Below, piece by piece: positions 6,855 to 27,834 of a DNA stretch of 64,000 bases. Both the position numbers and the translations under genes were made by a program. Where the stretch lies: NCBI RefSeq assembly GCF_900156575.1, contig NZ_FTNY01000001.1:496001-560000 (forward strand). Reading direction: 5' to 3'. Positions within the stretch are counted from its first letter, which is position 1, and each line of letters opens with the position of its first letter. The notes below the pieces were generated by a model. The model had not been told where the DNA came from and made no database searches. It worked only from the letters and a program-made list of their open reading frames with translations. The DNA comes from Chryseobacterium shigense. Lineage in GTDB: Bacteria > Bacteroidota > Bacteroidia > Flavobacteriales > Weeksellaceae.

Positions 6855-7793
6855 TCATGAGCGAAATTCCATTGGGGTAAATGATGTTTTTCTTTTAAAA
6901 AAGTTGGAAAAGTGAGCCAATTCTTCAAAGCCCAATGCATAGGAAATTTCTGACACATTCCATTTGGTTTGCCGGAGAAGGATCTTTGCTTCCTGAATCA
7001 TCCGGTCCGCAATACATTCTGTCGTTGTTTTTCCGGTACTTTCCTTTATTTTTTTATTTAAATAATTCACGTGTACAGCGAGCCTGTCTGCGTAGTCTTT
7101 TGCTGTTTTCAACTGCAATCTCTGGTCTGAAGACTCTATTGGAAACTGTCTTTCCAGAAGCTCTATAAACAATGAAACAACCCTCAGCGAAGCATCGTTT
7201 GAGGCAGAAAGTTTGGCGGCAGGCTGAAGTTTCTGTCCGTAGTGAATCAGTTCCAGAACATAGTTCCGGATGAGATCATATTTGAAAACATAATCGGAAG
7301 CTATTTCCTTTTTTATTTTGGTGAAAAGAGCTTCTATCTCATCTGCCAGCTCATCTTCAATTTCAAACAACGGAACATTTCCGGGCTGAAACAGGGGTAA
7401 TTCTTCCAAGGAGAACTGCGATTGTGCTTTTATGAAAAAGTCTTCCGTAAATACACAGAAACTTCCCGACTGATCCGGATCCTCGGGCACCCAGTGATAG
7501 GGAACTTTCGGAGTGGCAAATAATAACGCATTTTTCTTAATCGCGATAATCTTGTCTGCATATTCTGCCCTGTTTCGCCCTCTGATCAAACTGATCTTAT
7601 AGTATTTTCTTCTGTTGTAGGGCATTTCCGAAGTGGCTTTTGCCCTTTCGATAGTTTGTCTGATATCGAATACATTAAAATGTCCGATCTCTTTATGGAG
7701 TCCTTCAGGAAAAATAGCTTCAAGGTCTTTTCCCAGCTTGGCAGTCATCTCTCTGTAAAAATCTTCCAGGGATGTATGTGCGATCTTTTCCAT
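6855..7793 (-). CDS. AraC-family transcriptional regulator
   Basis: This is about 312 aa with an N-terminal sensing domain and a C-terminal double helix-turn-helix (VSEISYALGFEELAHFSNFFKRKTSF region). The ATG at 7793 (MEKIAHTSLEDFY) is chosen because the upstream 20 codons look non-coding. A promoter-like TATATTTG (minus strand) lies just upstream. It resembles the second AraC protein in the window (44128-45042) along its whole length, for example RRKYYKISLIRG against NRRDYYKVSFIQG, so the two are paralogues. It probably controls the SDR gene 100 nt downstream. Confidence 0.88.
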   Translation of the reverse strand: MEKIAHTSLEDFYREMTAKLGKDLEAIFPEGLHKEIGHFNVFDIRQTIERAKATSEMPYNRRKYYKISLIRGRNRAEYADKIIAIKKNALLFATPKVPYHWVPEDPDQSGSFCVFTEDFFIKAQSQFSLEELPLFQPGNVPLFEIEDELADEIEALFTKIKKEIASDYVFKYDLIRNYVLELIHYGQKLQPAAKLSASNDASLRVVSLFIELLERQFPIESSDQRLQLKTAKDYADRLAVHVNYLNKKIKESTGKTTTECIADRMIQEAKILLRQTKWNVSEISYALGFEELAHFSNFFKRKTSFTPMEFRS

Positions 7794-7813
7794 AACTGAC
7801 GGTTTGTAAAATT

Positions 7814-7889: not shown

Positions 7890-7897
7890 TACCTTAG
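7890..7897 (+). promoter_or_regulatory. TAnnTTAG box upstream of peptide gene A1
   Basis: TACCTTAG lies 25 nt before the peptide ATG. The same TAnnTTAG box sits 29 and 28 nt before two other GG-leader peptide genes (8232 and 11375). It departs from the usual TAnnTTTG at one base. Confidence 0.4.
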
Positions 7898-7922: not shown

Positions 7923-8084
7923 ATGAAAAATCAAACTTTAGAAAAAGGAAAAAAATTAAACAAGAGAGCACTGAGAAGTATTACCGGAGGATTAATGATG
8001 TGTCTAGATCCCAAAACCAATCAGTGCCGGGTTTTTTCGAAAGGCTGCGCAGACCCTCAATGTCGCCCTTCTTTACTGGATTAA
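7923..8084 (+). CDS. GG-leader cysteine-rich peptide, type A1
   Basis: The 53-aa precursor has a leader MKNQTLEKGKKLNKRALRSI ending in TGG, with the K-L-n-k-x-x-L-x-x-I-x-GG pattern of bacteriocin-type double-glycine leaders. The ~30-residue core carries four cysteines spaced C-x7-C-x6-C-x4-C followed by RP. The ATG at 7923 is preferred to the in-frame ATG at 7866 because only the former gives a normal leader. No peptidase-ABC exporter or modification enzyme lies in the window. A bacteriocin, toxin or signalling role is possible but not shown. Confidence 0.8.
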   Translation: MKNQTLEKGKKLNKRALRSITGGLMMCLDPKTNQCRVFSKGCADPQCRPSLLD

Positions 8085-8099
8085 ATCCTGAAACAAAAC

Positions 8100-8126
8100 A
8101 CCATTCCTGACCGGAGTGGTTTTTTA
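8100..8126 (+). terminator. Terminator after peptide A1
   Basis: ACCATTCC-tgacc-GGAGTGGT (8-bp stem, one G-U) is followed by TTTTT. It makes peptide A1 a separate transcript. Confidence 0.8.
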
Positions 8127-8231
8127 TGAATATCTTAATGTAATCATGATTAAGCTCCCATTAAATCACCATTCGGCTTACTTATTTAAATATTTATCAT
8201 GATATTGTGATATAATATCAATTATTTTTTC

Positions 8232-8239
8232 TATTTTAG
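8232..8239 (+). promoter_or_regulatory. TAnnTTAG box upstream of peptide gene A2
   Basis: TATTTTAG lies 29 nt before the ATG of peptide A2. It is the same variant -7 box as at 7890 and 11375. Confidence 0.4.
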
Positions 8240-8268
8240 TTAAATCTAATACACTAAAAATCAAAACA

Positions 8269-8433
8269 ATGAAAAATCAAGATTTACCAAAAGGAAAAAA
8301 ACTGAACAAAAAGCAATTAAGAAGTATCACCGGAGGATTGATGGACTGTATTGATCCGATGACCGGAGGTTGCAGAAAAGTATCAATAGGGTGTGCTCAA
8401 TTGCAGTGCAGACCCACAATAGATCCTTTATAA
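8269..8433 (+). CDS. GG-leader cysteine-rich peptide, type A2
   Basis: This 54-aa precursor starts MKNQDLPKGKKLNKKQLRSI and is cut after TGG. The core starts LMDCIDP and keeps C-x7-C-x6-C-x4-C followed by RP, exactly as in peptide A1. It is a paralogue of the peptides at 7923 and 9065, with its own promoter-like box and its own downstream hairpin. No known family could be assigned beyond the leader type. Confidence 0.78.
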   Translation: MKNQDLPKGKKLNKKQLRSITGGLMDCIDPMTGGCRKVSIGCAQLQCRPTIDPL

Positions 8434-8444
8434 AAAAATATATA

Positions 8445-8477
8445 AGCTGTTCAGTTAATGAATGGCTTTTGTTTTTT
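8445..8477 (+). terminator. Terminator after peptide A2
   Basis: AGCTGTTCA-gttaa-TGAATGGCT (9 bp, two G-U) is followed by TTTGTTTTTT. Confidence 0.65.
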
Positions 8478-8575
8478 AAGTCATCGAATATAATTTAATC
8501 TATTATTTCTTCATCAGATGATACGCTGATGTTTTCTTCATCTTCGTTTTCGACTAACTCATTAAAATCAAAACA

Positions 8576-8758
8576 ATGAAAAATATACTTTTAGAAAGCG
8601 CTAAAAAGCTTAGCAAGAAAGAGCTCAAAAGGATTGCAGGCGGCAAACTCTACTGTCTGAGACCGAATCCTTGCATGGAACCCTGCGAACAGGCTCCTAC
8701 CCCGACCTGTACCTTAATTTCTGTCAGCTGCGTAGAAATAGAATGCAGACCACAATAA
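8576..8758 (+). CDS. GG-leader cysteine-rich peptide, type B1
   Basis: The 60-aa precursor has a leader MKNILLESAKKLSKKELKRI with the cleavage site AGG. The core has six cysteines: C-x5-C-x3-C-x7-C-x6-C-x4-C then RPQ. The last four cysteines have the same spacing as the type A peptides, so both types share one scaffold, and type B adds two N-terminal cysteines. It is near-identical in layout to the next gene (8807), with a 48-nt gap and no terminator between, so B1, B2 and A3 may be one transcript. An even cysteine count suggests disulfide bonding. Confidence 0.8.
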   Translation: MKNILLESAKKLSKKELKRIAGGKLYCLRPNPCMEPCEQAPTPTCTLISVSCVEIECRPQ

Positions 8759-8806
8759 TTCATCATACTATAAAAAACTAATTAACAACAAGTAAAACTC
8801 AAAATC

Positions 8807-9010
8807 ATGAACACAATAATATTACAAAGTGCAAAAAAACTTAGCAAAAAAGAGCTTAAAACGATTGCAGGCGGTAAACTTGACTGTCTGAGATCAAACC
8901 CTTGTATGGAACCTTGTGAACAGATTCCTCCCGGGACCTGCACGCGGATTTCCATCAACTGTGCCCAAAAAGAATGCAGACCACAGGTTATAGATCCATC
9001 CATCGATTAA
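8807..9010 (+). CDS. GG-leader cysteine-rich peptide, type B2
   Basis: This 67-aa precursor is a recent duplicate of the gene at 8576. The leader MNTIILQSAKKLSKKELKTI ends in AGG, and the core keeps all six cysteines at identical spacing, including the block NPCMEPCEQ. The loops between cysteines differ (IPPGT against APTPT), so the scaffold is kept while exposed loops vary. It has a seven-residue C-terminal extension (VIDPSID) that B1 lacks. Function unknown. Confidence 0.8.
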   Translation: MNTIILQSAKKLSKKELKTIAGGKLDCLRSNPCMEPCEQIPPGTCTRISINCAQKECRPQVIDPSID

Positions 9011-9064
9011 CTTTTACTACAGAAAACCGTAGAATTGAATTCAACAAACCAAAAATCAAACCTT

Positions 9065-9244
9065 ATGAAAAATCAAAATTTAAACAACGGAAAAAAATTG
9101 AACAAAAGAGAATTAAGAACAATTGTTGGCGGAAAGGAAATGTGCATTGATCCAGCTACAGGAGAATGCAGAAAATACGGAAGAACATGCGCAGAACAGC
9201 AGTGCCAGCTGATTATTATAGATCCTATCGAAAGAATGTTCTAG
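9065..9244 (+). CDS. GG-leader cysteine-rich peptide, type A3
   Basis: The 59-aa precursor starts at the ATG at 9065 (MKNQNLNNGKKLNKRELRTI, cleaved after VGG); the in-frame ATG at 9035 would add ten non-leader residues. The core starts KEMCIDP and keeps C-x7-C-x6-C-x4-C, but the RP after the last cysteine is replaced by QL and the tail is longer and hydrophobic (IIIDPIERMF). It is the last member of the five-gene array and is closed by a strong hairpin. Confidence 0.78.
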   Translation: MKNQNLNNGKKLNKRELRTIVGGKEMCIDPATGECRKYGRTCAEQQCQLIIIDPIERMF

Positions 9245-9360: not shown

Positions 9361-10452
9361 TTATACATTGAATCTAAAGTGCATGATGTCACCATCCTGA
9401 ACGATATATTCTTTACCTTCTACCGAAAGCTTTCCGGCTTCTTTGATTTTCACTTCAGAACCATACGTTACATAATCATCAAATTTGATTACTTCTGCAC
9501 GGATGAACCCTTTTTCGAAATCTGTATGGATTACTCCTGCTGCCTGAGGCGCGGTCCATCCCTGTCCGATAGTCCAGGCTCTCACTTCTTTCACACCAGC
9601 AGTAAAGTAAGTCTGAAGCTTTAATAAGTCGTATGCTTTTCTGATCAAACGGTTTACTCCAGGTTCTTCAAGGCCAAGCTCGTCAAGGAAGATCTCTCTT
9701 TCTTCAAACGTTTCAAGCTCATTGATATCTGCCTCGATTTGTGCTGCCAATACCACTACTTCTGCTCCTTCATTTTTAGCCATCGTTTCGATCTTTTCTA
9801 TCCATTCGTTTCCGTTTTTGATAGAGTTTTCGTCTACGTTGCATACATATAAAACCGGCTTTTTGGTTAAAAGCTGGATATCATCAATGATCGACTGTGT
9901 CATATCATTCACAGGAAATTCTCTTGCATTTTTTCCATCTTCAATAAACTTCTCCAGGTTTTGAAGAGTCTCATAAACAAGGATATCGTCTTTCTTTCCG
10001 GATTTGATGAATTTTTTAGCTTTTTCAATGGCTTTTCCTACGGTTTCAAGGTCTTTCAACTGTAGCTCGATATCGATGATTTCTTTATCTCTCATCGGAT
10101 CTACTGAACCTTCAACGTGGATGATATTCCCATTGTCAAAACATCTTAAAACGTGGATAATAGCCTCACATTCGCGGATATTGGCCAGGAACTGATTTCC
10201 CAGTCCTTCTCCTTTGCTCGCGCCCTTTACAAGACCTGCAATGTCAACGATTTCAACAACAGCCGGCAATACTCTTTCAGGATTAACTAATTTCTCCAGC
10301 TCAAATAATCTCTGATCCGGTACTGATACCGTTCCTAAGTTCGGTTCTATGGTACAGAAAGGATAGTTGGCAGATTGTGCTTTAGCATTGCTTAAGCAGT
10401 TAAAAAGAGTTGATTTACCTACATTCGGAAGGCCTACAATTCCACATTTCAT
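9361..10452 (-). CDS. ychF: YchF/Obg-type ribosome-associated ATPase
   Basis: This is a 363-aa P-loop protein starting MKCGIVGLPNVGKSTLF. The G3 motif is DIAGLVKGASKGEGLGN. The G4 position reads NVDE instead of NKxD, the feature that makes YchF prefer ATP over GTP. A TGS-like domain forms the C-terminus (VIHTDFEKGFIRAEVIKFDD). Full family length. It is a cytoplasmic translation and stress-related ATPase and appears monocistronic. Confidence 0.96.
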   Translation of the reverse strand: MKCGIVGLPNVGKSTLFNCLSNAKAQSANYPFCTIEPNLGTVSVPDQRLFELEKLVNPERVLPAVVEIVDIAGLVKGASKGEGLGNQFLANIRECEAIIHVLRCFDNGNIIHVEGSVDPMRDKEIIDIELQLKDLETVGKAIEKAKKFIKSGKKDDILVYETLQNLEKFIEDGKNAREFPVNDMTQSIIDDIQLLTKKPVLYVCNVDENSIKNGNEWIEKIETMAKNEGAEVVVLAAQIEADINELETFEEREIFLDELGLEEPGVNRLIRKAYDLLKLQTYFTAGVKEVRAWTIGQGWTAPQAAGVIHTDFEKGFIRAEVIKFDDYVTYGSEVKIKEAGKLSVEGKEYIVQDGDIMHFRFNV

Positions 10453-11410: not shown

Positions 11411-11578
11411 ATGAAAAATTTCAAAAAGTTAAACCGCGTCGAGCTAAAAACTATTTCAGGAGGTGGATTACTTGATCCTGTGTGCAAACTTATTTGTACC
11501 CTGGCAGATTCTGGACTTCTCAATCTTACGGATGTTCAGGTACTTTTATGCCCTGATCTGGATTGTTTAAATTTGTAA
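11411..11578 (+). CDS. GG-leader peptide, hydrophobic type
   Basis: The 55-aa precursor has a short leader MKNFKKLNRVELKTIS ending in GG. The core (GLLDPVCKLICTL...) is hydrophobic and has four cysteines as C-x3-C and C-x4-C, ending CLNL. It shares the leader logic and the TAnnTTAG promoter box with the array at 7923-9244 but not the core scaffold. It stands alone between ferritin and the GHL10 lipoprotein and is followed by a terminator. Role unknown. Confidence 0.72.
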   Translation: MKNFKKLNRVELKTISGGGLLDPVCKLICTLADSGLLNLTDVQVLLCPDLDCLNL

Positions 11579-14332: not shown

Positions 14333-14548
14333 CTAACATAATGCACGTGCCATGCTCAACGCTTTTGGACAATCCCCATTTGGATCTGTATAACAAGATT
14401 GGCTTCCTTGTCTGTTAGAACAAGATACACACTGCTTACAGCCACTACCTCCGCCATCACTACCTTCACAGCAAGCTTCATCAAGATCTCCTCCTGTACC
14501 AGTAATGTTTTTTAATTGAATTCTCGAAATTTTTTTTAAATTTTTCAT
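14333..14548 (-). CDS. GG-leader peptide with eight cysteines
   Basis: The 71-aa precursor has a leader MKNLKKISRIQLKNIT with an unusual GTGG end instead of plain GG. The core is Gly/Ser-rich with eight cysteines, starting ACCEG and with the cluster CKQCVSC, and it ends in a terminal Cys (ARALC). It lies directly upstream of a GLPGLI gene. The leader matches the other peptides in the window (K-K-x-s-R-x-x-L-k-x-I), but the core is unrelated. Possible bacteriocin-like product; no maturation genes are nearby. Confidence 0.7.
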   Translation of the reverse strand: MKNLKKISRIQLKNITGTGGDLDEACCEGSDGGGSGCKQCVSCSNRQGSQSCYTDPNGDCPKALSMARALC

Positions 14549-20024: not shown

Positions 20025-22304
20025 ATTTTGAATTGCTTTCCAAAATTATTATCTTAGTGATTAGTCACAGCTTATGTTCAGTATTTATGTTCAGTATTTA
20101 TGTTGTGAATTGCTTTCAAAAATTATTATCTTCGTGATTAGTCACAGCTGCCCGTCAATAGTATTCGGTAGTCTACCGGTTGTGAATTGCTTTCAAAAAT
20201 TATTATCTTCGTGATTAGTCACAGCTAAAACGTGTCTTCATAATTAAACTCTATAGTTGTGAATTGCTTTCAAAAATTATTATCTTCGTGATTAGTCACA
20301 GCTATTGGAGTTGCTGATTTGCTTATATTATTGTTGTGAATTGCTTTCAAAAATTATTATCTTCGTGATTAGTCACAGCCGGCCGTCAAAGTTTGAAAAG
20401 TACTTAATAGTTGTGAATTGCTTTCAAAAATTATTATCTTCGTGATTAGTCACAGCTATGTTGAGTAGATCAGGATATACTTTAGGGTTGTGAATTGCTT
20501 TCAAAAATTATTATCTTCGTGATTAGTCACAGCATACAATAAATTAACAATTGAAGAATTTTTGTTGTGAATTGCTTTCAAAAATTATTATCTTCGTGAT
20601 TAGTCACAGCACTATTGTGGAGGGTGAATTTGATTGCATGGTTGTGAATTGCTTTCAAAAATTATTATCTTCGTGATTAGTCACAGCAAACATCTGAAAG
20701 AAATTCAAAACTTTCTTGTTGTGAATTGCTTTCAAAAATTATTATCTTCGTGATTAGTCACAGCTTTACCATTTTCTTCCAGCCAGTCCAAGCCGTTGTG
20801 AATTGCTTTCAAAAATTATTATCTTCGTGATTAGTCACAGCTCACACTCCGCCAGGTTCTCCGGCATGTAGGTTGTGAATTGCTTTCAAAAATTATTATC
20901 TTCGTGATTAGTCACAGCTTTACCATTTTCTTCCAGCCAGTCCAAGCCGTTGTGAATTGCTTTCAAAAATTATTATCTTCGTGATTAGTCACAGCTCACA
21001 CTCCGCCAGGTTCTCCGGCATGTAGGTTGTGAATTGCTTTCAAAAATTATTATCTTCGTGATTAGTCACAGCTTAGTTTTCTAATTGAACATCGATGATT
21101 TTGTTGTGAATTGCTTTCAAAAATTATTATCTTCGTGATTAGTCACAGCGTGGAATGATTAAATCCAAATCCATCAGACGTTGTGAATTGCTTTCAAAAA
21201 TTATTATCTTCGTGATTAGTCACAGCAGACGGGTAGCAAGCAAGGCTTAGTGGTGCGTTGTGAATTGCTTTCAAAAATTATTATCTTCGTGATTAGTCAC
21301 AGCTTTGCCTGCGATGAACCGGTGCAGACTTACGTTGTGAATTGCTTTCAAAAATTATTATCTTCGTGATTAGTCACAGCTTCGGGCTGCTGACTCACTT
21401 ATACGTTGCTGTTGTGAATTGCTTTCAAAAATTATTATCTTCGTGATTAGTCACAGCCCTCGACCAAACAATCATAAAAGCTATTAAGTTGTGAATTGCT
21501 TTCAAAAATTATTATCTTCGTGATTAGTCACAGCCGATATTTTGGAATTCTGGCCAAAAGTAATGTTGTGAATTGCTTTCAAAAATTATTATCTTCGTGA
21601 TTAGTCACAGCAGGCATTCCTAACAACTCAGTTGTAGGAACGTTGTGAATTGCTTTCAAAAATTATTATCTTCGTGATTAGTCACAGCTACGAAAACTGG
21701 GCCCGCTTTATAGATAACGTTGTGAATTGCTTTCAAAAATTATTATCTTCGTGATTAGTCACAGCCGGTTGATTCACACCCACAATTAAAAAACTGTTGT
21801 GAATTGCTTTCAAAAATTATTATCTTCGTGATTAGTCACAGCAGTTAATCAAAGAATTTAACAATCAAACCGGTTGTGAATTGCTTTCAAAAATTATTAT
21901 CTTCGTGATTAGTCACAGCTCCTGAAGGTATTATCCAGATCAGGGAAATGTTGTGAATTGCTTTCAAAAATTATTATCTTCGTGATTAGTCACAGCTTTG
22001 ACAAATTATCTGGCACACGATGGAAAGTTGTGAATTGCTTTCAAAAATTATTATCTTCGTGATTAGTCACAGCCCAGCGCAAATGAAAGCTTTCTTCCAA
22101 CGTGTTGTGAATTGCTTTCAAAAATTATTATCTTCGTGATTAGTCACAGCTGGAGACTGAATTAAAGCCAAATATCTTTAGTTGTGAATTGCTTTCAAAA
22201 ATTATTATCTTCGTGATTAGTCACAGCAAGATTTGCACCTCTAAGATTTGCACCTCTGTTGTGAATTGCTTTCAAAAATTATTATCTTCGTGATTAGTCA
22301 CAGC
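20025..22304 (+). CRISPR. Type II-C CRISPR array, 30 repeats and 29 spacers
   Basis: A 47-bp repeat begins GTTGTGAATTGC and ends TTAGTCACAGC, with 30-bp spacers and a strict 77-bp period. There are 29 copies without visible variants, starting at 20102 and then every 77 bp up to 22258. One degenerate copy at 20025-20071 has four mismatches (positions 1, 4, 17 and 32). The strand is assigned from the tracrRNA anti-repeat (27937-27961), which pairs with the 5' half of the repeat as read on plus, so crRNAs run rightward, toward and convergent with cas2-cas1-cas9. The degenerate repeat marks the left end as the old (trailer) end. Every repeat holds TATCTTCG, close to a -7 box, so each may start its own crRNA, as known in Neisseria. 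A pair of spacers is duplicated in tandem (see repeat entry). Several spacers read as open frames, as expected from coding targets. Confidence 0.98.
20765..21072 (+). repeat. Tandem duplication of two spacer-repeat units within the array
   Basis: The 154-bp block 20765-20918 (spacer TTTACCATTTTC..., repeat, spacer TCACACTCCGCC..., repeat) is repeated exactly at 20919-21072. This is an internal array duplication by recombination between repeats, not independent spacer capture. Confidence 0.95.
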
Positions 22305-22305
22305 C

Positions 22306-22348
22306 TCAAAAAACAATCTACTGAAAATCAGCAGATTGTTTTTGTTTT
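22306..22348. terminator. Bidirectional terminator between array and cas2
   Basis: AAACAATCT-a-CTGA-aaa-TCAG-c-AGATTGTTT is a long hairpin with A and T runs on both sides. It can end the rightward pre-crRNA and the leftward cas operon. Confidence 0.8.
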
Positions 22349-22361
22349 TAGGATTTAAAAT

Positions 22362-23590
<1,229 letters not shown>

Positions 23591-23601
23591 TTTTATCAAT
23601 T

Positions 23602-26600
23602 TTAATATTCGCCTACTTGAACAATTCTTCCAAGATGATTTAATCTTACTTTTACAATAGGCTTCAAATTATTGGAACTTTGAATTACTTTATATGATAT
23701 ATCTTTTAATTTTGAATTAACCTCTACACTGGTTTCTAAATGATGTCTAAACCAAAACCCAGAAAGTAATGACCCAAACTTCTGTACCCTAAACAAATTC
23801 TTAGAAATCAAACTCAAATTCTTATCATCAAACAAATCAATTTCTTTTGGATTGAAATCTTCAGACGGAAATAAAAACATTTCATTTTGCTTCATGGTAA
23901 AAAGAAACTTCCATCCTAAATCTTGGTTATAATCTTTATTAATAATGGTAAGGCCTTGATTTACTCTCTCAACGGCTTCATAGAAGCTCACCACTCTTTC
24001 CTGTAAGTTTCCATCTGCATCTTCATAAATAGCTACATGATGATTATTTCCTGTACTTACAAAGTCTGCAGCTATCTTTTTACCATTTTCGTCTAAAATC
24101 TCTTTTCCTAAATGATCTTTTTTATAATGTAAAGCCTCAGCATTATTAATTCCGGTAATTGTAACCGTTTTCACAACAATGCCTTTAGCCTTATTAAGCC
24201 AAATCGGATTCTTTTCCAAATCGGAAAAAGCTTCTTTAGAATTTCCGTTAAACGCTTTTAATCTTTCTGTTAAAATATCACGAATTCGTTTATCAGTAAC
24301 CTTTTCAATATTTTTGTAATCTTTAAAATTATCAGGATTAACCACTTTTCTGATTGTATAACCTGTCTCATACCAAGCTAAACTGACAGTTTCAGGCAAT
24401 TGTTCTGTTTTATCATCATTAAGAAATATCAGATTTTTTGAAATCACATTTTTCCCTGTAAATGCCTTTTTAGGATCTCCACCAAATTCCTGCAATCTTC
24501 CTAATAAAGCATTTCGGAATGTTTCATTCTGAACTTTATGAATAGTTTCCAGATCAAACTTTCCGGATATTTTTTCTTCTTTTGTTTTAAGGAATTTTGA
24601 ACGTCCATAAATAGTTTCTTTATGAAGCTGTCCTCTCGGTGTCAGCTCTGTTTTTGCAACTACACTTCCCTTTTTCTTAATTTTATTAATGTTCTTAGTA
24701 ACGACCTTATTTTTGGCTTTATGAGAAATCAGTACTTCATCCAAGTGCCTTTTAGCATCAACTCTTAAATTTTTAATCGGCTCAATAAATCTTCTTTCTT
24801 TTGAACCGTTTTTCTTTTCAATAACTTTTGTAATTGTGTTCTCAATCGCAAAAATATTTTGATGTTCCTTATGCTTTTCATCTTTTCTTGCATTCAGATA
24901 ATTTAAGTATTGAATATGGCTATGCGTAGTAAAAGCAACAGTCAGAGCATCCATTGCATGATGGCGATGGTCGTTTCTTTTGGTCCAGTCTATAATTCTT
25001 TGTTTCTCTTCTCCTTTTGAATTAATGATCGTTTCGGTCAAACCTAATTTCTTGTATTTCTCCAGATTAAGCTCCTTCATTGTGTTGACAAGATTCCAGT
25101 CTTCCCGAAGCTTATCTGTTATTCTTCCTGAAGTAGAAACTACAGAATTGGTAATTCCAAAAAGTATTTCTTTAGCTTTTTTAGCGATATATTGAGTATT
25201 GCGCAAATCTCTTTCAATAAAACCATCGCCTATTTCGATGCCTTTTTTCTGGAGTTTTTCATATTTAGCTTTAGTAATAACTCCTTTATCATACAGCTCT
25301 TTGATAATATTAAGGAATTTTTCTAATTTTTCCTTTCCTTCAATTTCAAGATAATCGAAAGCCGTGAAATTTCCTTTTTTAAGATTTGCTCCTCTTGGAA
25401 CTAAAACTTTATTGGAAAAACTGTCATCAAAGAATCGGGATTGTGGAATGATATGGTCTATATCATATTTCTCCGTGAATAAATTTTCTCTTTCAATCTT
25501 CACATCGGTGTATAAATCTTTATAGCCATTATTTGCTAATTCTAAGTATAATTTATATCGGATAATATCATTTCTTGAAGGACTTTTTATCCCAAATTCC
25601 CTTTGCAAAACCTCCGAATATTTCTGATGCTGTATAGTAGCCTTGTTAATTTCAGAAGTCATCGTAGCACGCTCTTCCGCATTAAGTTTGAGTTCTCGTG
25701 CAAGCTCTATTCTGATTTCAGCAAATTTGAAATGTTTAACAATATGCCCATCGTTATCTTTCTCACTATACTCATCAATTAAGAAGTTTACAAGATTGAT
25801 CATTTGATTCAAAATCTTTTCAACGACTGGATTTCGTAAAGAATTTTTTGGAAGAATCTCTAATTGCTCTTTTAAAACTCTATTTTCTAATTGTTCTTTG
25901 GTCAATGAATTTTTAGAATGATGATAACCTGCATAATTACAAGCCACACTATATTTATGCTCCTTAATGTAAGGATAAATTTTTCGCATCGCCTTAGAAC
26001 TCAGACTTCCATAATCCTGAGGAAAACCAATTTCAGCTAATATTTTGGAATGCTCTTTTTTCAAACCGAATTTCTTCTCCAACAATTCATAGAGTTTTTC
26101 GTTTCCAGAAGGAGAATCATCACCTTCATAAGAATACAATAGGTGCCAAAGCTGATAGGAAACCTGCTTTTCAAAATCACTTCCATCCAATTCAGGATTA
26201 AAATCCAAAATAGAAGTATTGATTCCTAATTCTGATAGTTTTTCTTTGACGAATAGTTTTATAGTTTCAGCAGAAGAATTGATCTTAGCCACCTTAATTT
26301 CATCGTCAATAGTTAATTTAAATTCTTTTGGAAATTCAATCCCCTCATTTGCTATAATTCTCAGGAAAGCATTATATAAATTCTCATTGGTATTATTACC
26401 TTCAATATCTTTAAAATTAGTTTTCCATTCTTTACCGGAGTACCCAACAATATCTAAAACTTCTTTTGCTGAAAGTCTTCCCTTAGTATTAACTTCATTG
26501 AAAATGGATTGTTTAAAATCTAAATCAATAGGAAAAATTTCTTTTGATTCTATATTTTGAAACTGTAAATTATTAAGAACCTGCCAGATTTTGAACTCCT

Positions 26601-27834
26601 GAAATAACGGAGAAGACTTTGGTGCTACTTTTAAACCAACTGTTTTCTTTTTTGTTTTTCCGCTTTCTGCTATTTCGATTTCTCTGTTTTCAAACTCACA
26701 AATACTGATTAATCCTTTTTGAGATTTGAGCTTTCTTTGATAAAAAATAACAATATCCCGAATTTCCTCCTTTAACTCTTTGGTCAATTCCTTATGATAT
26801 TTTGATTGAATTTCCCATATTTTTTCAAATTCATCCAAATAATCCTGTCTGTAGAAAACCTGATTTTTAAGCTTCGTATGTGGATTTATTTTTAACTGGT
26901 GATATAAATATTCTCCAACAGTCTGATTATTGAAATACAATTCTTTGCTCCTGTCACTGATCGCGCCGAGATAACCACTGGAATTATTCAGATTACTGTT
27001 AATTTCCTGAAAAACAACAGCCAGACTTTCAAAATCTGATTGTTTTCTTACCGCTTCACTTCTCCAAAAGTATTTTTCTGATTTTTTCTCCTGCATCGTT
27101 CCGGTCTGCTTAATGCCTACAAGAGAAAATGGAATCTCTAATTCTTTCCAGGTTGCATTTCTATTCTTACCTCTAAGTCTTTCATAAAGTTCATTTGTGA
27201 AAATTTCAGGATTGAATTGTTTCTGAAAATCCCAGACTTTATCAAATTCCGCCTGTAAATCTGAACGGTAAAAATCAGGCAGTTGTTTTTTGCCCTGTTG
27301 TAAAAGTTGATATGAATATTCTCCGGGTGTCAAATTCTCTTCATACAATTTTTTGGCAACAGCCATTCCGTCTACGATCTGTCCATCGTCATCATTTTTA
27401 GCTTTACGGCTGCTTTTATATCCTCTTTTCTTATTGATAAGAAGCAGAACTCTGGCCAATTCTGAAAGTTCTATTTTTTCTTTTGCTGCCTTTGCTCTTA
27501 GTTCCTGAGTTTGAAATGTTGAGTTTTTGCCAACTTCTGCAAGGAGGTCGGTTTCTCTAAAAATATTGTTTTTCTTTAAAACATCAATAAGGTTGGACCT
27601 TCTTAACTTAAACCTCTGAAGATTTCTTCTCGCACTTCTGGCTAAAGTTCTTCCGGCATTGGTTGTAATCGGTTTTCCCTTTTCAAAATTTAATTGTTCA
27701 TCAACAGTTAATGGATTTACACGAACTCCCAGTTTGATAATTGTATTGTTTTCAGAATTTTCAGAATCCTCCTGAACGTAAGCCCAGCCAATTGATGAAA
27801 CTCCCAAGTCTAATCCTAAAATATTTCTAATCAT
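23602..27834 (-). CDS. cas9: CRISPR RNA-guided endonuclease Cas9 (type II-C)
   Basis: This is a 1410-aa Cas9. RuvC-I is ILGLDLGVSSIGWAYV with Asp at residue 9. The arginine-rich bridge helix ARSARRNLQRFKLRRSNL is near residues 65-82. RuvC-II is FAEIRIELAREL near 703, HNH is DIDHIIPQSRFF near 788 with the downstream SNKVL, and RuvC-III is HHAMDALTVAF near 955. All catalytic residues look intact. The length exceeds the ~1050-1100 aa of Neisseria or Campylobacter II-C enzymes but fits the large Bacteroidota branch. It is first in the cas9-cas1-cas2 operon and divergent from the tracrRNA gene. The PAM cannot be read from the sequence. Confidence 0.98.
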   Translation of the reverse strand: MIRNILGLDLGVSSIGWAYVQEDSENSENNTIIKLGVRVNPLTVDEQLNFEKGKPITTNAGRTLARSARRNLQRFKLRRSNLIDVLKKNNIFRETDLLAEVGKNSTFQTQELRAKAAKEKIELSELARVLLLINKKRGYKSSRKAKNDDDGQIVDGMAVAKKLYEENLTPGEYSYQLLQQGKKQLPDFYRSDLQAEFDKVWDFQKQFNPEIFTNELYERLRGKNRNATWKELEIPFSLVGIKQTGTMQEKKSEKYFWRSEAVRKQSDFESLAVVFQEINSNLNNSSGYLGAISDRSKELYFNNQTVGEYLYHQLKINPHTKLKNQVFYRQDYLDEFEKIWEIQSKYHKELTKELKEEIRDIVIFYQRKLKSQKGLISICEFENREIEIAESGKTKKKTVGLKVAPKSSPLFQEFKIWQVLNNLQFQNIESKEIFPIDLDFKQSIFNEVNTKGRLSAKEVLDIVGYSGKEWKTNFKDIEGNNTNENLYNAFLRIIANEGIEFPKEFKLTIDDEIKVAKINSSAETIKLFVKEKLSELGINTSILDFNPELDGSDFEKQVSYQLWHLLYSYEGDDSPSGNEKLYELLEKKFGLKKEHSKILAEIGFPQDYGSLSSKAMRKIYPYIKEHKYSVACNYAGYHHSKNSLTKEQLENRVLKEQLEILPKNSLRNPVVEKILNQMINLVNFLIDEYSEKDNDGHIVKHFKFAEIRIELARELKLNAEERATMTSEINKATIQHQKYSEVLQREFGIKSPSRNDIIRYKLYLELANNGYKDLYTDVKIERENLFTEKYDIDHIIPQSRFFDDSFSNKVLVPRGANLKKGNFTAFDYLEIEGKEKLEKFLNIIKELYDKGVITKAKYEKLQKKGIEIGDGFIERDLRNTQYIAKKAKEILFGITNSVVSTSGRITDKLREDWNLVNTMKELNLEKYKKLGLTETIINSKGEEKQRIIDWTKRNDHRHHAMDALTVAFTTHSHIQYLNYLNARKDEKHKEHQNIFAIENTITKVIEKKNGSKERRFIEPIKNLRVDAKRHLDEVLISHKAKNKVVTKNINKIKKKGSVVAKTELTPRGQLHKETIYGRSKFLKTKEEKISGKFDLETIHKVQNETFRNALLGRLQEFGGDPKKAFTGKNVISKNLIFLNDDKTEQLPETVSLAWYETGYTIRKVVNPDNFKDYKNIEKVTDKRIRDILTERLKAFNGNSKEAFSDLEKNPIWLNKAKGIVVKTVTITGINNAEALHYKKDHLGKEILDENGKKIAADFVSTGNNHHVAIYEDADGNLQERVVSFYEAVERVNQGLTIINKDYNQDLGWKFLFTMKQNEMFLFPSEDFNPKEIDLFDDKNLSLISKNLFRVQKFGSLLSGFWFRHHLETSVEVNSKLKDISYKVIQSSNNLKPIVKVRLNHLGRIVQVGEY

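What the first reader, a model, noticed from the sequence alone, without database searches (positions are those of the whole stretch)
7923..9244. Tandem array of five GG-leader peptides sharing one cysteine scaffold
Five small precursors (7923, 8269, 8576, 8807, 9065) share a double-glycine leader. All five cores end with C-x7-C-x6-C-x4-C. Three have four cysteines (type A); two add C-x5-C-x3 in front (type B). Order is A-A-B-B-A. Loops vary while spacing is fixed, as in diversifying secreted peptides. The scaffold is not one I can name. No dedicated peptidase exporter or modifying enzyme is in the window, so export would be served from elsewhere. This is the best candidate for an undescribed system here.
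Basis: partly seen in the sequence, partly recalled or inferred. Interest (0 to 1): 0.75.

Follow-up and report, generated by a model that had tools for sequence, protein, structure and literature searches.

The report
Array of secreted cysteine-rich mini-peptides
Five neighbouring genes encode small export-tagged, cysteine-rich peptides of a family found across the bacterial genus Chryseobacterium; they are probably folded with disulfide bonds and shipped out by machinery encoded elsewhere in the genome, perhaps to act on neighbouring bacteria.

Summary
In detail: five tandem ORFs carry a canonical double-glycine leader and a shared cysteine scaffold (5 motifs against 0.01 in Markov copies). 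They belong to a family lying between an AraC-type gene and ychF in 73 of 75 related loci; with the window these hold 221 peptides, all with C-x6-C-x4-C, in 4-, 6- and 8-cysteine forms. A candidate exporter lies elsewhere in the genome: C39 ABC exporter plus HlyD beside a VKOR-thioredoxin oxidase. Of 173 genomes ten lack the exporter; all ten lack VKOR and nine have no match to the array alignment. In another family of the order, similar peptides (last spacing x3) lie near VKOR in 12 of 14 stretches and in the same stretch as the C39 exporter in 10 of 14. Best model: GG-leader peptides, oxidised and exported, probably bacteriocin-like; related in logic to bacteroidetocins but failing the bacteroidetocin features tested. 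Export and oxidation are supported by association; no biochemical step was shown, and the activity is inferred.

The parts
7923..8084 (+). Peptide gene 1, 4-Cys form (7-6-4), 53 aa precursor, 30 aa core, net charge +1
   Evidence: its counterpart in L063, the fetched locus with the most similar flanks, is broken by a premature stop inside the leader
8269..8433 (+). Peptide gene 2, 4-Cys form, 54 aa precursor, 31 aa core, net charge 0; the member with most counterparts (18 loci at core identity 0.7 or more; pooled dN/dS 0.07 leader, 0.08 core)
8576..8758 (+). Peptide gene 3, 6-Cys form (5-3-7-6-4), 60 aa precursor
8807..9010 (+). Peptide gene 4, 6-Cys form (5-3-7-6-4), 67 aa precursor
9065..9244 (+). 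Peptide gene 5, 4-Cys form, 59 aa precursor; the ATG at 9065 is preferred to the upstream TTG at 9035
7890..7897 (+). TAnnTTAG promoter-like element of gene 1; the upstream AGTGATATA box is degenerate here (6 of 9)
8206..8214 (+). Upstream promoter-like box of gene 2, TGTGATATA (8 of 9 to AGTGATATA), 17 nt before the TAnnTTAG element
8232..8239 (+). TAnnTTAG promoter-like element of gene 2, 29 nt before the ATG
6855..7799 (-). AraC-type regulator gene, conserved left border of the site, divergent from the array (no evidence that it regulates the array)
   Evidence: the name AraC is by recognition of the sequence, no family search was run on it
9361..10452 (-). ychF-type GTPase gene, conserved right border of the site, convergent with the array
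   Evidence: the name is by recognition

Best explanation
The five genes make precursors of secreted, disulfide-bonded mini-peptides. Shown here: canonical GG leader, conserved Cys scaffold, conserved site, purifying selection, an unlinked C39 ABC exporter/HlyD/VKOR-thioredoxin locus in the same genome, joint absence of exporter, VKOR and peptides in nine genomes, and physical linkage of a closely similar scaffold to VKOR and the exporter in another bacterial family. Inferred: the leader docks on the C39 domain of the exporter encoded on another contig (G000:C11:26573-28762) and is cut after GG; the VKOR-thioredoxin protein oxidises the cysteines into two or three disulfides in the periplasm; HlyD and an outer-membrane channel release the mature 30-44 aa peptide; outside, the peptides most likely act on related bacteria (bacteriocin-like), with paralogs as a small repertoire gained and lost by duplication and decay. 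I put export plus oxidation at about 0.8 and antagonism as the role at about 0.45.
For: Leader: in 221 of 221 array peptides Leu at -12 and -7 and Gly at -2 and -1, with Ile 215 / Val 6 at -4 (partly imposed by the leader pattern used to collect them). Within the sites all 221 have C-x6-C-x4-C, which was not used to collect them. Exporter locus L137: VKOR PF07884 39.5 bits (cut-off 27.5) fused to Thioredoxin_4 33.0 (23.2), C39 ABC with PF03412 120.8 (22), HlyD_3 43.1 (22.2), with a GG peptide gene between VKOR and exporter. Genus: A1 matches 160 of 173 genomes at E 0.01 or less. No exporter ortholog in 10 of 173, all 10 without VKOR, 9 of them without an A1 match; of the other 163 genomes 4 have no A1 match (two of these, G030 and G106, have only a weaker VKOR match, 3.6e-35 and 2.2e-98) and 1 has no VKOR (Fisher 2e-11 and 2e-15). 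On a one-gene (YchF) tree of 30 chosen genomes exporter presence needs 7 changes, at least 6 forced by well-supported branches. Linkage elsewhere: in genus g35 of family f3 the 12 genomes found each have a stretch where the peptide (C-x7-C-x6-C-x3-C) has VKOR nearby, nearest gap 103-4149 bp, and in 10 of these 12 the C39 exporter (61.7-64.5% identical to L137's) is in the same stretch; of the two without it one stretch ends with its contig. Precedent: bacteroidetocins are cut at GG, migrate differently on reduction, need a thiol oxidoreductase gene for full activity, sit with a C39-type ABC exporter and have no immunity gene (PMC6671954, passages).
Against: No expression, secretion, cleavage or activity data. 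Cores are neutral to acidic (4-Cys mean -0.56, 6-Cys -1.49, 8-Cys -1.33), unlike the basic bacteroidetocins. No other ORF of 90 aa or more lies within the window's AraC-ychF interval, so there is no obvious immunity gene, and strong purifying selection at a fixed site suits a housekeeping or signalling role as well as a weapon. The genome has many other GG peptides, so the joint absence may concern the whole class; and 41 exporter-bearing genomes lack an A3 core match (by subtraction). G069 lacks exporter and VKOR yet keeps one related CxC-type peptide. G004 keeps the exporter without VKOR. In at least five genomes (G001, G031, G118, G142, G143) VKOR and exporter lie 6 to 152 kb apart. In g35 the last spacing is x3, not x4; three of the 12 peptides have GQ (L210, L211, L233) and one GS (L236) in place of GG; two further g35 stretches with a scaffold peptide (L214, L215) have neither VKOR nor exporter; and the VKOR proteins there are 25-29% identical to L137's, 45% for one.
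Confidence: 0.5

Rival explanations
1. Same export and folding, but the peptides are communal or developmental factors (biofilm, signalling, adhesion) rather than antibacterials, like EbfG1-4 of Synechococcus.
For: Purifying selection with pN/pS 0.12 (leader) and 0.21 (core); fixed chromosomal site in 73 of 75 loci; neutral to acidic cores; no match of peptide 8269 in the plasmid or phage records. EbfG1-4 are GG-motif proteins whose secretion depends on a C39-type peptidase transporter and which are needed for biofilm (PMC4997328, passages).
Against: One to six paralogs per site with divergent cores, a broken copy in the most similar relative and no core match in 50 of 173 genomes of the genus (by subtraction) suggest dispensability and a repertoire rather than one conserved signal.
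Confidence: 0.3
2. The peptides are RiPP precursors whose cysteines are used in thioether or other modifications made in trans by one of the LanB-type systems of the same genome.
For: Two C39 exporters of this genome lie beside lantibiotic dehydratase genes (L138 with LanC, L139), and one g35 stretch (L213) has LanB and LanC together with the peptide.
Against: Only the four Cys are invariant in A3, no Ser/Thr column is; VKOR is present in 12 of 12 of the linked g35 stretches. The g35 stretches other than L213 were not scanned for LanB, so its absence there is not shown.
Confidence: 0.1
3. The peptides are enzyme inhibitors or metal-binding secreted mini-proteins that protect the producer.
For: Compact Cys scaffold; AlphaFold2 gives mean pLDDT 91.3 for the 4-Cys core in the best of five models.
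Against: No fold match (0 Foldseek hits); in the PDB by sequence only SAKe6AR at E 1.8e-4 over 8 residues, then E 1.6 and worse, for the 4-Cys profile, and RhTx at E 0.11 for the 6-Cys profile; five models scatter from 58 to 91; 6-Cys core pLDDT 61.
Confidence: 0.08
4. Chance or non-coding ORFs.
For: Short ORFs; the core matches no curated family.
Against: 5 versus 0.01 motifs expected; pN/pS far below 1 across species; promoter-like element 25-31 nt before the ATG in 95 of 98 sites.
Confidence: 0.01

Closest known systems
Bacteroidetocins (Coyne et al. 2019, PMC6671954; target BamA, PMC8546649; passages seen)
   Same: Bacteroidota; GG leader; four Cys; C39-type ABC exporter; thiol oxidoreductase partner; no immunity gene
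   Different: Ours: 23-residue leader (15-16 there), unlinked exporter in Chryseobacterium, VKOR-thioredoxin fusion, neutral/acidic cores, tandem array at one site, 4/6/8-Cys forms; activity unknown. The main text of PMC6671954 does not contain the word Chryseobacterium
NCBIfam leader families TIGR01847 (bacteriocin-type signal), NF047798 (leader_Chryseo), TIGR04149
   Same: GG-type leader; TIGR01847 just passes its cut-off for genes 8269 (15.8 vs 15.7) and 8807 (16.7)
   Different: TIGR01847 and NF047798 cover the leader only (15 and 18 positions); NF047798 and TIGR04149 miss their cut-offs for all five
EbfG1-4 / PteB of Synechococcus elongatus (PMC4997328, passages)
   Same: Small GG-motif secreted proteins, co-transcribed, with a C39-type transporter
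   Different: Different phylum; sharing of the Cys scaffold was not tested
Chryseobasin, ChrA/ChrH/ChrI (PMC10214503, outline and first part)
   Same: Cys-containing ribosomal peptide of Chryseobacterium
   Different: Needs a DUF692 enzyme and a C-terminal CPACGMG motif, absent from the five cores

Membership tests
GG-leader peptides exported by C39 ABC transporters | Leader with Leu -12, Leu -7, Ile/Val -4, Gly -2, Gly -1 (consensus recalled) | tested here: met
   221 of 221; the collection pattern partly imposes it
GG-leader peptides exported by C39 ABC transporters | C39 ABC exporter in the same genome | tested here: met
   three in G000; one with HlyD and VKOR beside it
GG-leader peptides exported by C39 ABC transporters | Cleavage after GG and secretion | not testable with these tools
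   needs mass spectrometry
TIGR01847 bacteriocin-type signal | score at or above 15.7 bits | tested here: inconclusive
   2 of 5 pass by 0.1 and 1.0 bit, 2 of 5 miss with 15.2 and 13.8, 1 of 5 not reported
NF047798 leader_Chryseo | score at or above 23.5 bits | tested here: not met
   0 of 5, best 21.7
TIGR04149 rSAM-modified RiPP | score at or above 25 bits | tested here: not met
   0 of 5, best 20.9
Bacteroidetocins | leader of 15-16 residues | tested here: not met
   23 residues in 202 of 221, shortest 17; criterion from PMC6671954
Bacteroidetocins | four-gene locus: five-TM protein, peptide, thiol oxidoreductase, C39 ABC | tested here: not met
   the exporter and VKOR queries matched in 0 of the 75 fetched loci; a VKOR/GG peptide/C39 cluster exists at L137; a five-TM gene was not searched for
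Bacteroidetocins | basic mature peptide | tested here: not met
   means -0.56, -1.49, -1.33 versus +2 and +6 in the paper
Bacteroidetocins | kills Bacteroidota through BamA | not testable with these tools
   needs assays
Bacteroidetocins | sequence homology of the mature peptide | not tested
   peptide letters are in figures that are not held
Class IIa bacteriocins | YGNGVXC motif | tested here: not met
   absent from the five cores by inspection; motif as quoted in PMC6671954
Chryseobasin (ChrA) | C-terminal CPACGMG | tested here: not met
   absent from the five cores by inspection; motif from PMC10214503

The most novel reading that the evidence does not exclude
Chryseobacterium and relatives have a shared oxidise-and-export hub for many orphan GG peptides: a VKOR-thioredoxin membrane oxidase with a degenerate C39-like N-terminal domain binds the GG leader itself and couples disulfide formation to export by the C39 ABC transporter, so that peptide arrays at remote sites can expand and change as interchangeable cargo of a modular C-x6-C-x4-C fold.
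Probability: 0.25. Interest if true: 0.75.

Novelty: new variant of a known kind. Interest (0 to 1): 0.55.

Why it matters
If right, much of a genus of Gram-negative environmental bacteria carries a repertoire of secreted disulfide mini-peptides on a scaffold for which no name was found, with a fixed genomic address that makes them easy to collect (221 from 74 loci). It ties orphan GG peptides to a specific exporter and oxidase through joint absence and linkage, which makes secretion directly testable by single gene removals, and it offers a cysteine framework whose loops vary naturally.

Tried and rejected
Family libraries: Pfam, NCBIfam, PHROGs and PADLOC gave no family for the core. Solved structures: the 4-Cys profile gave SAKe6AR at E 1.8e-4, but its best stretch is 8 residues and passes no threshold on its own, then E 1.6 and worse; the 6-Cys profile gave only RhTx toxin at E 0.11 over 25 residues; none is taken as evidence. 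Foldseek against the PDB gave 0 hits and the VIA second look had nothing to compare. AlphaFold2 on the 6-Cys core was poor. Chryseobasin was considered because of the host genus and rejected on the motif. Peptide 8269 was sought on plasmids and phages: no match. An element like the array promoter was sought in ten stretches, L137-L145 and the window: one unconvincing site, in L143, so no sign that exporter and array share it. Profile comparison of the VKOR N-terminus with the exporter's C39 domain was weak (probability 9%, E 0.0034, 75 co-linear columns; reversed control 0.5%, E 0.12); of five VKOR proteins of g35 scanned, one (L212) passes the Pfam C39 cut-off (26.5 vs 22) and one (L210) misses it at 20.0.

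Papers: PMC10214503 outline and first of six parts of the text, PMC6671954 passages, PMC8546649 passages, PMC4997328 passages; all others only as search listings. That this family is not described rests on those searches of an open-licence library only.

Selection effects: the 75 loci, the best of 89 matches, were found with patterns from the leader and the first Cys; interval peptides were collected by leader only, so broken copies such as the one in L063 are missed. Ortholog sets were cut at core identity 0.7, which lowers dN, and the core of gene 1 gave no dN/dS because synonymous change is saturated; one search used reciprocal best pairs above 0.5 and, for the ratio, pS below 0.6 (163 of 823 pairs). 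The 30 genomes of the tree were hand-picked to include all ten exporter-lacking ones. Exporter 'lacking' means no match with E of 0; G128, incomplete, with E 4.8e-133, was counted as having it. The four-Cys alignment A3 used 74 of 101 unique 4-Cys cores, A4 45 of 79 unique 6-Cys cores. Searches scored 98 of 115 upstream regions, those with a TAnnTTNG element at a suitable distance. Among the A3 hits, those of the four g9 genomes and of G069, G094 and G141 are of a CxC type, a second paralog class, and those of G146 are 6-Cys.
Full report
Observation. The window holds five tandem ORFs on the + strand at 7923-8084, 8269-8433, 8576-8758, 8807-9010 and 9065-9244. The cores match no family in Pfam, NCBIfam, PHROGs or PADLOC; the responses are mostly to leader models and below cut-off, with TIGR01847 passing its cut-off narrowly for two of five.

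A family at a fixed address. The window is part of a 4.9 Mb genome (G000). The 75 related loci fetched from named genomes are all from records titled Chryseobacterium, but for one titled Weeksellaceae. In 73 of 75 the flanks include the same AraC-type gene and ychF; L103 has neither and L079 only ychF. In none of the 75 did the C39 exporter, the VKOR or a lanthipeptide-type C39 exporter match in the fetched stretch. Collected by leader alone between those borders, and with the window, there are 221 peptides in 74 sites, all on the same strand, one to six per site. All 221 have C-x6-C-x4-C; 120 have four Cys, 83 six and 18 eight; 218 have exactly three residues between GG and the first Cys. Sixteen of the 18 eight-Cys forms look like two four-Cys units in a row by their spacing, so C-x6-C-x4-C is the constant module and the N-terminal part varies. 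The array alignment A1 matches 160 of 173 genomes of the genus at E 0.01 or less, many only weakly. The core profile A3 matched 127 of 320 genomes of the family, that is 123 of 173 in the genus and four in one other genus, in 2 of 33 genera, and 32 of 395 genomes sampled from the order, in 2 of 108 genera.

Evolution. Between species, orthologous cores are conserved: pooled dN/dS is 0.03-0.12 for the four genes where it could be computed, and in 163 reciprocal-best pairs with pS below 0.6 pN/pS is 0.21 in cores and 0.12 in leaders. Paralogs within a site share 75% of the leader but 40% of the core outside Cys (54 pairs of the 7-6-4 form in 31 loci). In L063, the fetched locus with the most similar flanks, gene 1 is broken by a premature stop in the leader. 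This is birth and death of paralogs under purifying selection, not rapid change of each copy.

Expression signals. Of 115 upstream regions of first genes or genes after gaps of 90 bp or more, 65 hold TAnnTTAG (shuffled mean 8.1) and only 2 TAnnTTTG (shuffled mean 11.9); of 106 genes after shorter gaps, where less sequence was looked at, none holds either, which fits operons. In 98 regions the TAnnTTNG element lies 25-31 nt before the ATG in 95; a box matching AGTGATATA in at least 8 of 9 positions occurs in 73 of 98 against 3 of 98 in shuffled copies, 15-17 nt before the element in 70 of the 73. As the genes are paralogs, shared descent explains part of this. In the window, genes 1 and 2 have the element; gene 3 has a degenerate one by inspection, genes 4 and 5 follow at short gaps. 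TAnnTTTG as the usual Bacteroidota element is recalled, from no call.

Export and folding. The genome has three C39 ABC exporters. Two sit beside lantibiotic dehydratase genes; the third sits with a GG peptide gene, an HlyD gene and a protein combining VKOR and Thioredoxin_4 domains. In the first 20 rows, compared by eye, VKOR and exporter lie on one contig less than 1 kb apart in 20 of 20; lower in the lists at least five genomes (G001, G031, G118, G142, G143) have them 6 to 152 kb apart. Across 173 genomes of the genus ten lack an exporter ortholog; the same ten lack VKOR (11 lack it in all), and nine of the ten have no match to A1, against four of the other 163. I took genomes without an E of 0, other than the incomplete G128, as lacking the ortholog. 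On a YchF tree of 30 selected genomes the trait needs seven changes and at least six are forced by supported branches, so the joint absence is not one clade's history, with the cautions that A1 also picks up other GG peptides, that the tree is of one gene and that the rows were chosen. The exception, G069, keeps one CxC-type relative.

Linked relatives. In genus g35 of family f3, unnamed here, 12 genomes were found with peptides such as CIDPATNRC-x6-C-x3-C behind a leader like ours (two genomes only in the order sample; 10 of 199 in the genus sample; sequences). Their last spacing is x3. In each of the 12 a VKOR gene is near, with gaps of 103 to 4149 bp, and in 10 of the 12 an exporter 61.7-64.5% identical to that of L137 is in the stretch; L210 shows none in 16 kb and L236 ends with its contig. 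Two of these genomes have a second scaffold peptide (C-x6-C-x6-C-x4-C; L214, L215) with neither VKOR nor exporter in 16 kb, so the count over stretches is 12 of 14 and 10 of 14. Three of the 12 have GQ and one GS at the cleavage site, which weakens the leader argument for them. This linkage is the strongest reason to believe that the Chryseobacterium array, which has no such neighbours, uses the unlinked exporter and oxidase. At least one VKOR protein of this set (L212) carries a C39-like N-terminus over the Pfam cut-off, matching only positions 45-132 of 133, so without the start of the domain where the exporters have DCGxxC (weak profile match).

Structure. AlphaFold2 gives the four-Cys core a mean pLDDT of 91.3 in the best model, but the five models range from 58 to 91 and pTM is 0.47; the six-Cys core is not modelled well. 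No fold match and no convincing sequence match was found in the PDB. Pairing of the cysteines was not read from the model.

Function. The nearest tested system is the bacteroidetocins: GG cleavage, evidence of disulfides, C39-type exporter, thiol oxidoreductase, no immunity gene (PMC6671954, passages), acting on BamA (PMC8546649, passages). The array peptides follow a similar logic but differ in leader length, charge and gene layout, so they are not filed as members. The rival is a communal role as for EbfG1-4 (PMC4997328, passages). No result here decides between them; purifying selection and acidic cores lean towards the rival, multiplicity, turnover and the oxidase-exporter precedent towards antagonism.

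Noticed in passing
window 11411-11578 (+) and 14333-14548 (-): Two further GG-leader peptide genes with other cores; both pass the NF047798 leader_Chryseo cut-off (35.2 and 33.3 bits vs 23.5).
   Followed up: no
window 20026-22383 and 22362-27834: CRISPR-like array with period 77 (29 copies in register) beside ORFs that read as Cas2, Cas1 and a 1410-residue Cas9 (names by recognition).
   Followed up: no
G000:C11:91249 (L140 near 5250); L216 7717-8087; L217 7726-8293: A second paralog class (CxC ... C-x6-C-x4-C) lies beside an 864-residue ClpB-like gene (name by recognition) both in this genome and in two genomes of another genus of the family: a second conserved address.
   Followed up: partly
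AraC-ychF interval in L062-L136: The interval also takes up other genes on the opposite strand; a lipoprotein-like ORF of about 360 residues occurs in 14 of 74 loci, and SDR-like ORFs (by recognition) in several.
   Followed up: no
L138 3201-10813, L139 6017-11197: Two lantibiotic-dehydratase loci with their own C39 exporters in the same genome.
   Followed up: no
L214 7881-8042, L215 7957-8121: In two g35 genomes a further scaffold peptide (C-x6-C-x6-C-x4-C) lies in stretches without VKOR or exporter.
   Followed up: partly
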